Positions 49,352 through 50,404 of a stretch of DNA of 64,000 nt are shown piece after piece. Numbering within the stretch: the stretch's first letter is position 1; each line of letters starts with the position of its first letter. The position numbers and the translations under genes were made by a program. This stretch comes from Prosthecobacter fusiformis (GTDB lineage: Bacteria > Verrucomicrobiota > Verrucomicrobiia > Verrucomicrobiales > Verrucomicrobiaceae), in contig NZ_SOCA01000001.1 of assembly GCF_004364345.1 (NCBI RefSeq), positions 186,001-250,000 on the forward strand, given 5' to 3'. The notes beneath the pieces are model-generated. The model saw only the letters and a program-made list of their open reading frames with translations. It ran no database searches and was not told the origin of the DNA.

Positions 49352-49567
49352 ATGAGAGCCGCCCCAACCCACCACTCAGGCGAACCCGTCTTCAAGGTCC
49401 CCGCCCAGCCCTTCCAGATCCGGTCCTTCATGGAATCCCTCGAAGCCGAATTCCCAGACACCCGCAGCTCCCGCATCATGGAAGCCTACCAGGAAGCCCA
49501 AATGGAAATCCACTCCGACAATCAAGACTCCCTCAAAGCCAAAGTCCGGGAAATTTTATACCGGTAA
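49352..49567 (+). CDS. Small hypothetical protein
   Basis: A 71-residue ORF with protein-like composition and a helical, acidic second half (SRIMEAYQEAQMEIH). No family recognised. Its stop codon TAA (49565-49567) lies at the very edge of the oldest tRNA 3'-half copy, so its last residues may be affected by that element. Coding potential is moderate. Confidence 0.5.
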   Translation: MRAAPTHHSGEPVFKVPAQPFQIRSFMESLEAEFPDTRSSRIMEAYQEAQMEIHSDNQDSLKAKVREILYR

Positions 49568-49616
49568 CAGAGACAGGATTGAACCTGTGATCCCGCTCGC
49601 GGGATAATGAGCCGGA
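49563..49616 (-). repeat. tRNA-fMet 3'-half copy a (degenerate)
   Basis: Read on the minus strand, this holds the CTCATTAT part, the ATCCCGC-GA-GCGGGAT hairpin, and the T-arm with one deleted base (ACAGGTTCAATCCTGT). The acceptor end is decayed (CTCTGTTACC instead of CCCCGCTACC). It is the most diverged of the copies that still align well. Confidence 0.75.
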
Positions 49617-49645
49617 GGTCCGCACGATGCCGAACACTCACCTCG
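49617..49645 (-). pseudogene. Internally deleted GIY-YIG unit remnant
   Basis: Minus-strand sequence right after a terminator T-run begins ACGAGGTGAGTGTTCGGC, and about 30 bases later joins CTCCGGCTCATTA of a tRNA 3' half. The full unit next door begins ACGAGATG at the same place and ends TCCGGCTCATAA. This fits a copy of the nuclease gene that kept only its two ends; it is inference from alignment by eye. Confidence 0.5.
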
Positions 49646-49683
49646 TAAAAACGGTGAAGGCCGTGCATTGCTGCACGGCCTTC
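49646..49683 (-). terminator. Duplicated tRNA-fMet terminator copy
   Basis: GAAGGCCGTGCA and TGCACGGCCTTC form a perfect 12-bp stem with a GCAA loop, followed on the minus strand by ACCG and TTTTT. It is identical to the terminator behind tRNA-fMet and lies behind tRNA-half copy b, so it probably ends the GIY-YIG transcript. Confidence 0.85.
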
Positions 49684-49686
49684 ATT

Positions 49687-49742
49687 TGGTAGCGGGGACA
49701 GGATTTGAACCTGTGATCCCGCCTGCGGGATTATGAGCCGGA
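49687..49742 (-). repeat. tRNA-fMet 3'-half copy b, containing the nuclease stop codon
   Basis: The T-arm and acceptor strand through CCA are identical to tRNA-fMet at 50328. The anticodon-side part reads GGCTCATAATCCCGC, and a hairpin ATCCCGC-AG-GCGGGAT replaces the true variable region. The TAA stop of the GIY-YIG gene (49731-49733) lies inside this copy. Confidence 0.9.
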
Positions 49743-49997
49743 TTGCCCTTGAGGACGAATAAGTCCCGTCATCCGATAAAATCCTGAGCCGCCCTTTTGC
49801 GCCTTCAGCAGATTTTCCAGCTTACGCGCCTCAGTGAGCGTCATGGAATCACCCGACCACACAAGCTGCCAAGGCCCCCGAGCTTTTGTCCATTTAGAGA
49901 CCCCCTCATTGTGGTCCACGAGTCTTTTGGAAACATCCTCCGACAGACCAATATAGAAACGGCCCTCCGCGTTTTGGATCACGTAAACCTGATACAT
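49731..49997 (-). CDS. GIY-YIG nuclease, tRNA-associated
   Basis: An 88-residue single-domain GIY-YIG protein. It has YQVYVIQN and GRFYIGLSED (the GIY and YIG elements), the conserved Arg in SKRLVDHN and the catalytic Glu in ARKLENLLKA. Related to UvrC N-terminal and homing-endonuclease domains. Its ATG (49995-49997) lies directly behind a decayed copy of the tRNA terminator (ACGAGATG). Its last residues (QSGS) and stop codon are encoded by a tRNA-fMet 3' half. A perfect terminator copy follows. The gene therefore looks like the cargo of a small tRNA-anchored element. The target site is inferred to be tRNA-fMet; not shown. Confidence 0.88.
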   Translation of the reverse strand: MYQVYVIQNAEGRFYIGLSEDVSKRLVDHNEGVSKWTKARGPWQLVWSGDSMTLTEARKLENLLKAQKGGSGFYRMTGLIRPQGQSGS

Positions 49998-50085
49998 CTC
50001 GTAAAATGGTGAAGCCGCCTATTTCTGCACGCTATTTCATTGAGTAACCGAGCCAAAATGAACTCGTGCCCCCTCACAGGATATG
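49998..50085 (-). repeat. Highly decayed tRNA-half and terminator copy
   Basis: Upstream of the nuclease start codon. Plus-strand words CTCGTAAAATGGTGAAGCC, CTGCACG, TTCATTGAGTAACCGAG and CGTGCCCCCTC align in order with the intact terminator plus tRNA 3' half, with many changes. It gives the nuclease unit a copy on both sides. Confidence 0.5.
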
Positions 50086-50187
50086 CACCTGAGCGCCCGT
50101 GCACATCTACCGATAACCAAGTCCATACTCCCCCTCATTAAAGCCCGTCAAAACGGTAAACCCCATCCATTCCTGCACGGCCTTCAT
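50086..50187. other. Spacer with degenerate terminator copy
   Basis: No gene. The right part (from about 50146) keeps AACGGTAAACCCC and CTGCACGGCCTTCATTGGG, a terminator copy in which the left arm has been lost. The left part shows no recognisable feature. Confidence 0.4.
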
Positions 50188-50243
50188 TGGGTAGCGGGGA
50201 CAGGATTTGAACCTGTGATCCCGCTCGCGGGATAATGAGCCGG
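50188..50243 (-). repeat. tRNA-fMet 3'-half copy c
   Basis: T-arm and acceptor strand match tRNA-fMet, apart from one extra base before CCA. The anticodon-side part reads GGCTCATTATCCCGC, with the hairpin ATCCCGC-GA-GCGGGAT in place of the variable region. The TTA here, where copy b has TAA, means this copy would not stop a nuclease frame. Confidence 0.88.
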
Positions 50244-50287
50244 AGGAGCCGAAACGATGCCGAACACTCACCTCAGACCCACCTCGT
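50244..50287 (-). pseudogene. Second internally deleted GIY-YIG unit remnant
   Basis: Directly behind the tRNA-fMet terminator the minus strand reads ACGAGGTGGGTCTGAGG, then GTGAGTGTTCGGCATCGT, and joins CTCCTCCGGCTCATTA of tRNA-half copy c. The GTGAGTGTTCGGCATCGT block is shared with the remnant at 49617. The nuclease body is absent. Confidence 0.5.
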
Positions 50288-50324
50288 AAAAACGGTGAAG
50301 GCCGTGCATTGCTGCACGGCCTTC
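50288..50324 (-). terminator. Terminator of tRNA-fMet
   Basis: Minus-strand stem GAAGGCCGTGCA / TGCACGGCCTTC with GCAA loop, then ACCG and TTTTT, starting 3 bp after the tRNA CCA. Confidence 0.9.
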
Positions 50325-50327
50325 ATT

Positions 50328-50404
50328 TGGTAGCGGGGACAGGATTTGAACCTGTGACCTTCAGGTTATGAGCCTGACGAGCTACCGGGCTGCTCCACCC
50401 CGCG
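50328..50404 (-). tRNA. Initiator tRNA-fMet (CAU)
   Basis: A 77-nt tRNA with encoded CCA. Acceptor CGCGGGG / CCCCGCU with a C1-U72 mismatch, as initiator tRNAs lack the first pair (C1-A72 in E. coli). D-arm GAGC / GCTC with A11-U24, anticodon loop CTCATAA, T-arm ACAGG-TTCAAAT-CCTGT. The anticodon stem has AGG / CCT in place of the usual three G-C pairs, a variant known in some bacteria. Confidence 0.95.

What the first reader, a model, noticed from the sequence alone, without database searches (positions are those of the whole stretch)
49563..50404. A GIY-YIG nuclease gene embedded in head-to-tail copies of a tRNA-fMet 3' half plus terminator
Seen directly: the 3' half of tRNA-fMet recurs three more times downstream of the real gene. 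Each copy is joined to a terminator-like hairpin, and one interval holds a complete GIY-YIG gene whose start codon abuts a terminator copy and whose stop lies within a tRNA half. Known: elements that insert in tRNA genes leave tRNA 3' ends as direct repeats, and GIY-YIG domains occur in homing nucleases. Inferred: a minimal mobile unit consisting of nuclease ORF, tRNA 3' half and terminator that inserts behind tRNA-fMet and regenerates the tRNA gene end each time. No integrase or transposase is present.
Basis: partly seen in the sequence, partly recalled or inferred. Interest (0 to 1): 0.82.

Follow-up and report, generated by a model that had tools for sequence, protein, structure and literature searches.

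The report
Nuclease gene parasitising tRNA genes
A tiny gene for a predicted DNA-cutting enzyme sits at the start-tRNA gene of this bacterium, which is still whole, with disfigured tRNA tails around it, and relatives of the gene sit in the same way at several other tRNA genes in this bacterial phylum.

Summary
The array is real. On the minus strand: complete tRNA-fMet, terminator, tRNA remnant, decayed terminator, spacer, GIY-YIG ORF, remnant, terminator, remnant.

Comparison shows a family. Of 50 fMet-type loci examined, 48 carry tRNA-fMet sequence beside the ORF (36 the complete gene within 500 bp upstream); the two exceptions are truncated fragments. ORF plus hairpin is constant; T-arm letters follow each host's own tRNA. 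One occupied/empty pair (89% identical flank) shows that the terminator before the ORF is foreign and the one behind the remnant native. Five ORF pairs have dN/dS 0.09-0.13. Other GIY-YIG genes sit at tRNA-Ser, Thr, Pro, Ala, Asn and Asp; at Thr and Ala they end in a tRNA remnant whose anticodon arm is swapped for a hairpin.

Best reading: a chromosomal, free-standing homing-type endonuclease that enters tRNA genes by break repair and leaves the tRNA functional, working like phage SegB. Cleavage and mobility are inferred, not shown; the hairpin's role is open. Ten searches of an open-licence library listed no report of it.

The parts
50328..50404 (-). complete initiator tRNA gene, tRNA-fMet (CAT)
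   Evidence: ARAGORN; the half query finds 4 places in the genome, this gene and the three remnants
50296..50325 (-). intact terminator hairpin T1 behind tRNA-fMet
   Evidence: -25.4 kcal/mol
50245..50295 (-). spacer of an ORF-less unit; shares GAGGTGAGTGTTCGGCATCGT with spacer 49617-49654
50190..50244 (-). tRNA-fMet remnant A, hairpin ATCCCGC-GA-GCGGGAT at 50218-50233
50155..50187 (-). decayed terminator copy behind remnant A (limits approximate)
   Evidence: -7.2 kcal/mol
50003..50041 (-). decayed terminator copy abutting the ORF start (limits approximate)
   Evidence: -6.3 kcal/mol
49731..49997 (-). 88-aa GIY-YIG nuclease ORF; stop codon TAA is in the anticodon loop of remnant B
   Evidence: model pLDDT 90.4
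49688..49742 (-). tRNA-fMet remnant B, hairpin at 49716-49731; T-arm and acceptor letters identical to the host tRNA
49655..49684 (-). intact terminator hairpin T4 behind remnant B
   Evidence: -25.4 kcal/mol
49617..49654 (-). spacer of a second ORF-less unit
49563..49616 (-). tRNA-fMet remnant C, decayed at its 3' end, hairpin at 49590-49605; no terminator-like site found behind it

Best explanation
A chromosomal, free-standing homing-type element made of one small GIY-YIG nuclease gene plus a terminal hairpin and dedicated to the tRNA-fMet gene. Inferred mechanism: the nuclease cuts tRNA-fMet genes (anticodon/variable-loop to T-arm region) in element-free chromosomes. The break is repaired by copying from a carrier, with the tRNA letters on both sides as homology. 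The tRNA gene is left complete, the ORF and hairpin are copied in, and the recipient's own 3' end (T-arm, acceptor, terminator) is displaced as a remnant. The hairpin in place of the 3' anticodon stem keeps the remnant from being a tRNA or (inferred) a target. Because an intact tRNA stays upstream, further rounds or unequal crossing-over build tandem arrays, in which ORFs are sometimes lost, as in the window. Expression is probably by read-through from the tRNA promoter (inferred). Shown: architecture, host-matching, empty sites, purifying selection in several pairs, clustering of tRNA type on the nuclease tree. Inferred: cleavage, homing, self-protection, expression.
For: GIY-YIG domain; of the catalytic positions as I recall them, the YIG Tyr, the Arg and the Glu (Y15, R25, E61) are invariant in 17 aligned proteins and the GIY Tyr (Y5) is kept in 16. 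dN/dS 0.085-0.129 in L098/L099, L095/L100, L122/L126, L035/L036, L138/L140. 48 of 50 loci tied to tRNA-fMet sequence. T-arm/acceptor letters of the remnant match the host's own tRNA: 9 mismatches over 26 loci and 16 host types against 125 from shuffling, 0 of 10,000 as low, while the hairpin is TCCCG..CGGGA in 50 of 54 remnants, with 32 different loops among the 49 with a stem of 6 or more pairs. Empty site G450 against occupied G221: right terminator native, left foreign; G024/G028 (83% flank) agrees by one base plus synteny. L170: the ORF starts 5 nt after the acceptor CCA, no terminator between. Patchy: 15 of 387 genomes of the phylum by neighbourhood. Two identical 356-bp tandem units in a one-contig genome. 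tRNA type clusters on the nuclease tree: 9 changes, minimum 8, shuffled mean 37.5. SegB precedent: a GIY-YIG enzyme that cuts in tRNA genes and drives tandem tRNA+segB amplification (PMC13096335, passages seen).
Against: No cleavage data. The functional tRNA upstream of the ORF is intact, so a target lying wholly inside the tRNA would still be cut in carriers. The 88-aa protein is a bare GIY-YIG domain whose nearest solved relative is UPF0213, then Slx1, not a homing enzyme with a DNA-binding tail. dN/dS is higher in other pairs (L128/L133 0.229, L125/L130 0.216, L036/L037 0.481) and saturated for every pair with the window's own ORF. In G151/G319 both terminators look native, so only one pair is clearly informative. 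The fMet group is not one clade on the tree (3 changes; a long-branched Asp row and one row without tRNA fall inside). L125 and L130 have the remnant before the ORF and the tRNA after it. Two truncated relatives (L180, L190) have no tRNA-fMet sequence nearby. If donors came from hosts with other T-arms, the restored tRNA and the remnant should differ; 19 of 26 are identical, so donors must be close kin or conversion acts.
Confidence: 0.58

Rival explanations
1. Mini integrative element moved by a tyrosine recombinase in trans: the repeats are att sites in tRNA-fMet, as left by genomic islands.
For: Ectopic copies start in the anticodon arm (L095, L104). In G064 an ORF with a Phage_integrase domain (E 2.6e-9) follows the complete tRNA-fMet, and a canonical displaced half plus the GIY-YIG unit lies about 75 kb away on the same contig.
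Against: That island explains displacement of a unit already present. The units hold no integrase. In the remnants the identity block is broken by the hairpin, which att sites would not show. The nuclease is under purifying selection in several pairs and clusters by tRNA type.
Confidence: 0.13
2. Hairpin-directed element, as in IS200/IS605 or RAYT/REP: the nuclease acts on the TCCCG..CGGGA hairpin, which is its substrate for excision and amplification.
For: Stem constant, loop free. Similar hairpins at other tRNA types with divergent nucleases. Structure-specific Slx1 is the second nearest fold (E 4e-3). TCCCGCN{1,7}GCGGGA exceeds the reversed-pattern control in 12 of 16 genomes, e.g. G067 98 v 7, G180 109 v 15.
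Against: In the window's genome the excess is small (15 v 10), in the two f5 carriers there is none (G221 21 v 23, G151 8 v 14); exact copies of the longer pattern in G000 lie only in this array.
Confidence: 0.14
3. Passive: tandem duplication of the tRNA region next to an ordinary resident GIY-YIG gene, without mobility.
For: Identical tandem units in G067 and L252; ORF-less and truncated copies occur.
Against: Empty and occupied sites in sister species with a foreign left terminator; constant ORF plus hairpin with host-following T-arm; association with one tRNA species across the phylum.
Confidence: 0.08
4. RNA-level system (toxin-antitoxin or defence-like): the hairpin-swapped tRNA remnant in the nuclease mRNA is a decoy or 3' processing signal.
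For: Remnants A and B fold as a T-arm/acceptor minihelix in silico; remnants are well kept.
Against: The hairpin's 3' strand does not change with the host acceptor stem (GCGGGA also with CCCTGCA acceptors). PADLOC matches are weak (PDC-S14 E 4.3e-5; HEase E 0.025). No partner gene in the unit.
Confidence: 0.07

Closest known systems
SegB of T-even phages (free-standing GIY-YIG homing endonuclease; PMC13096335, abstract and passages seen)
   Same: GIY-YIG enzyme encoded beside tRNA genes; tandem repeats of tRNA plus nuclease gene, with microhomology between the nuclease 3' end and the tRNA; SegB breaks map inside tRNA genes and its motif RAWTSGAAC is, in reverse complement, close to the tRNA T-loop (that comparison is mine; the fMet T-loop differs at one position)
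   Different: Here in bacterial chromosomes; 88 aa without a DNA-binding tail; the duplicated tRNA part is a 3' remnant with a hairpin swap; cleavage untested
Group I introns with GIY-YIG endonucleases in tRNA genes (recalled; PMC3984707 seen in listing only)
   Same: GIY-YIG gene entering the anticodon region of tRNA genes such as tRNA-fMet
   Different: The tRNA here is contiguous and complete; no intron family match
Integrative elements that use tRNA 3' ends as att sites (recalled)
   Same: tRNA restored upstream, 3' end displaced as a repeat starting in the anticodon arm
   Different: No recombinase in the unit; hairpin interrupts the repeat
UPF0213-type small GIY-YIG proteins (1zg2, 1ywl)
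   Same: Nearest solved sequences (E 5.3e-8 and 6.7e-4) and nearest fold (1zg2, E 5.4e-4)
   Different: The two entries carry no function; most other GIY-YIG hits in the window's genus form a separate clade without a same-strand tRNA upstream, two Leu cases apart

Membership tests
GIY-YIG nuclease superfamily | PF01541 above cut-off with conserved motif residues and fold | tested here: met
   46.5 bits v 22.6; Y15, R25, E61 invariant, Y5 in 16 of 17 (positions recalled); model pLDDT 90.4, nearest folds UPF0213 (E 5.4e-4), Slx1 (4.2e-3), UvrC domain (0.18)
Free-standing homing endonuclease gene | enzyme cuts the element-free allele | not testable with these tools
   no wet assay
Free-standing homing endonuclease gene | patchy presence, empty alleles at the same site in relatives | tested here: met
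   G221/G450 and G151/G319 (89% flank), G028/G024 (83%); 15 of 387 genomes
Free-standing homing endonuclease gene | carrier allele lacks an intact target | tested here: inconclusive
   target unknown; the tRNA is intact upstream, the remnant carries a hairpin
SegB family | sequence membership | not tested
   SegB itself was not compared; one phage-record match of 32% over 74% of the query; a PHROG endonuclease family in 3 of 17 members, best E 4e-4
Group I intron-encoded endonuclease | intron RNA around the ORF | tested here: not met
   Rfam at E<=1 on 8 loci: tRNA, plus isrJ, anti-hemB and sR32 below their gathering scores
Tyrosine-recombinase integrative element | recombinase gene within the unit and uninterrupted att identity block | tested here: not met
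   ORF-only units; hairpin interrupts the repeat
REP/RAYT-like dispersed palindrome system | palindrome dispersed in carrier genomes | tested here: inconclusive
   over control in 12 of 16 genomes, strongly in G067 and G180; not in G221, G450, G151, G319, little in the window's

The most novel reading that the evidence does not exclude
A previously undescribed class of bacterial chromosomal mobile elements: single GIY-YIG genes in lineages that each home into one tRNA species (fMet, Thr, Ser, Pro, Ala and others), leaving a working tRNA plus a tRNA remnant whose anticodon arm, in whole or part, has been swapped for a hairpin that serves as the element's end and self-protection.
Probability: 0.4. 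Interest if true: 0.88.

Novelty: new variant of a known kind. Interest (0 to 1): 0.76.

Why it matters
It would add a bacterial chromosomal branch to intronless homing. An essential tRNA gene, apparently single-copy here, would be entered again and again and each time left whole, with tRNA type appearing to follow nuclease lineage. It would explain tandem tRNA halves and odd tRNA pseudogenes behind tRNA genes, and it offers very small enzymes that may have tRNA-gene specificity. The question is directly testable: does an 88-aa GIY-YIG domain cut a tRNA gene, and what does the hairpin do?

Tried and rejected
Whole-genome scripting was not available. Plasmid collection: no match at E 1e-8. Phage collection: one weak match at E 1e-4. 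Viral contigs: 27 stretches matched a pattern, none confirmed. Hairpin as a general REP of the window's genome: not supported. Acceptor-stem mimicry by the hairpin: the in-silico minihelix forms, but the strand does not follow the host acceptor, so rejected as an explanation of its conservation. Ectopic copies as free transposition: rejected for G064, where an island with an integrase explains it; L104, L118, L121, L128, L137 and L174 also have a half without a tRNA gene upstream, but their islands were not traced. tRNA-Leu cases L153/L155: they sit in the clade of genes without tRNA on the tree, so taken as coincidence. tRNA-Gln neighbours: opposite strand, 700-960 bp away, not counted. Promoter scan: no sigma-70-like site on the minus strand in 49500-50600, not even for the tRNA itself, so it says nothing about the ORF. 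A count of how far the remnant matches the tRNA 5' half failed by a slicing error in my script (last line) and is not used.

Rows dropped or chosen before counts: one search examined 37 of 44 hits (7 gave no tblastn match in my script). One search has 41 rows; L116 and L136 repeat L036 and L037. One search used 26 of 27 loci (one T-loop did not fit the regular expression), and L134 and L175 are the same genome. One search was given the fMet-type loci by score and left out L180 and L190, which I added after (48 of 50). In one search, 25 of 387 genomes passed E 1e-12, but by neighbourhood 15 are fMet-type, 9 are other types or without a tRNA, and G398 (L180) is unclear. In one search the labels were set by hand and fMet includes rows known only by a remnant. 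The pattern required TCC..GGA and CATA, so only the further letters count as evidence, and two of the window's three remnants (CTCATTA) fall outside it.

Literature: searches. By titles and abstract starts none reports GIY-YIG genes at bacterial chromosomal tRNA genes; brought the phage SegB paper. Papers: PMC13096335 (abstract and passages), PMC1564403 (four passages); all others listing only. Open-licence PMC papers, no preprints.

Full report
What is in the window. On the minus strand, in order: complete tRNA-fMet (50404-50328); intact terminator hairpin; an ORF-less unit ending in a tRNA-fMet remnant; a decayed terminator; a spacer; another decayed terminator abutting the start codon; an 88-aa GIY-YIG ORF (49997-49731, PF01541 46.5 bits against a cut-off of 22.6); a second remnant; an intact terminator; a second ORF-less unit with a third, decayed remnant. 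The ORF's stop TAA is in the anticodon loop CTCATAA of the second remnant. The half query finds four places in the genome, the gene and the three remnants, so the array sits on what appears to be the only tRNA-fMet gene of an assembly reported as 99.91% complete.

The halves are not plain copies. In all three, the 3' side of the anticodon stem and part of the variable loop (CCTGAAGG) are replaced by TCCCGC-nn-GCGGGA. The pattern ATCCCGCN{1,6}GCGGGAT occurs three times in this genome, all in the array.

Relatives. In 48 genomes of the genus, three close homologues (65-73% identity) were found, all behind tRNA-fMet with the same order. Hairpin remnants were found in further genomes and genera of the family (G002, G003, G034, G060, G061, G064, G067; 68 genomes searched). 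One genome held as a single contig (G067) carries two identical 356-bp units and a truncated third ORF. A scan of species genomes with a profile of seven proteins gave 35 loci, titled Verrucomicrobia, Opitutaceae, Akkermansia, Lentisphaerae, Kiritimatiellae, Victivallales, PVC group or plain bacterium, among similar names. In a sample of the phylum 25 of 387 genomes passed E 1e-12; by neighbourhood 15 of them (14 genera) are fMet-type. After removing repeats, 50 fMet-type loci: 36 with complete tRNA-fMet within 500 bp upstream, 2 with it downstream, 6 with a canonical half directly upstream, 4 with a hairpin remnant only, and 2 truncated fragments (L180, L190) with no convincing tRNA-fMet match. 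27 of 41 ORF rows end at the TAA or TAG of the anticodon loop.

What belongs to the element and what to the host. Across 26 loci with 16 different host T-arm/acceptor strings, the remnant follows its own host (9 mismatches in total, 19 loci with none; shuffled mean 125, 0 of 10,000 as low). Across 54 remnants the hairpin is TCCCG..CGGGA in 50 while loops differ freely. So ORF plus hairpin is constant and the T-arm onward is the host's. The G221/G450 pair (89% identical flank) is the informative empty site: the terminator of the empty site equals, apart from a few bases, the one behind the remnant, and the terminator between tRNA and ORF is foreign. G028/G024 (83% flank) points the same way by one terminator base and synteny. 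In G151/G319 both terminators look native, which decides nothing. In L170 the ORF starts 5 nt after the acceptor CCA with no terminator between.

Selection. dN/dS is 0.085 to 0.129 in L098/L099, L095/L100, L122/L126, L035/L036 and L138/L140, 0.22-0.23 in L125/L130 and L128/L133, and 0.48 in L036/L037, where L037 is frameshifted. Pairs with the window's own ORF and L119/L122 are saturated at silent sites. The nuclease is maintained in some lineages and decays in others: G003 and G034 keep only remnants, G027 has lost the frame. In G002 the two ends of an ORF lie at two contig ends, so its state is unknown.

Other tRNAs. In the genus, 14 of 37 examinable GIY-YIG hits lie on the same strand within 335 bp behind a tRNA: fMet 4, Ser 7, Val 1, Leu 2. 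Phylum-wide, related genes sit at Pro, Asn, Thr and Asp. A Thr-type query matched 17 of 387 genomes; of 20 distinct places, 12 have a complete same-strand tRNA within 800 bp upstream (Thr, Pro, Ser, Ala), 4 show tRNA remnant sequence only (two of these are fMet-type), and 4 have neither. On the tree of 84 proteins the tRNA label needs 9 changes (minimum 8; shuffled 37.5). The tree has few columns, many weak forks and long branches, and the fMet group needs 3 changes, not 1. At Ala (L252) and Thr (L185, L189) the anticodon arm itself is swapped for another perfect hairpin at the same position; L231 shows the same remnant but its complete tRNA is not in the locus, and in L250 the tRNA carries Ns. 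At Asn (L183) and Asp (L191) a perfect hairpin sits elsewhere in the remnant. The Ser remnants checked (L237, L240) show no long perfect hairpin directly before the T-arm, though L237 has TCCCGC-GCG-GCGGGA further upstream.

Mechanism. I read this as intronless homing into tRNA genes with break repair, as set out in the best explanation. SegB of T-even phages is the nearest worked example: its breaks map inside tRNA genes, and its tandem amplification uses microhomology between the nuclease 3' end and the tRNA (PMC13096335, passages). SegB's motif RAWTSGAAC is, in reverse complement, close to the T-loop; that comparison is mine. What does not fit easily: the intact tRNA in carriers, the bare 88-aa domain, and the unexplained hairpin. 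Rivals are listed with their tests.

Ectopic units. L095 starts exactly at the anticodon loop away from tRNA-fMet. On the same contig an ORF with a Phage_integrase domain follows the complete tRNA-fMet about 75 kb away, so a genomic island very likely displaced a unit that was already there.

Novelty. The enzyme superfamily and free-standing homing are known. A chromosomal family at several tRNA species with a hairpin-swapped remnant was not seen in the listings of ten searches of an open-licence library, which does not prove that it is unpublished.

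Noticed in passing
window 51542-51720: Behind tRNA-Ser(GGA) the window has the palindromic stretch TGACCTCCGAAGCTCGCAGAGCGAAGGACGGGCC, a version of which lies on both sides of a Ser-type GIY-YIG gene in another genome of the genus (L040); no GIY-YIG gene was found here, perhaps an ORF-less relic.
   Followed up: partly
L098:830-900: Upstream of tRNA-fMet in G060 lies a pseudo-tRNA in which the 5' half is joined to the hairpin-type 3' half.
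   Followed up: no
L126:2740-2800, L146, L138, L140: Some remnants carry a second hairpin in the T-loop, one behind the acceptor, or one nested inside the first hairpin, as if such hairpins insert repeatedly.
   Followed up: no
G067, G180 whole genomes: TCCCGCN{1,7}GCGGGA is strongly over-represented (98 v 7 and 109 v 15 for the reversed control), suggesting a dispersed palindrome family in some carriers.
   Followed up: partly
L162:215-1561 and L163: Genomic island in tRNA-fMet of G064 (its contig matches Verrucomicrobium sp. BvORR034) with an integrase gene next to the tRNA.
   Followed up: partly
L125, L130: Two Opitutia loci have the hairpin remnant, with tRNA 5' half, before the ORF and the complete tRNA-fMet after it, the reverse of the usual order.
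   Followed up: no
L190 (G064:C160:215071): A truncated relative of the nuclease in the same contig as the displaced unit, without tRNA-fMet sequence nearby.
   Followed up: partly
window 53118-62216 (-): Very large ORF (3032 aa) that looks like a YD/RHS-repeat protein by eye; not examined.
   Followed up: no
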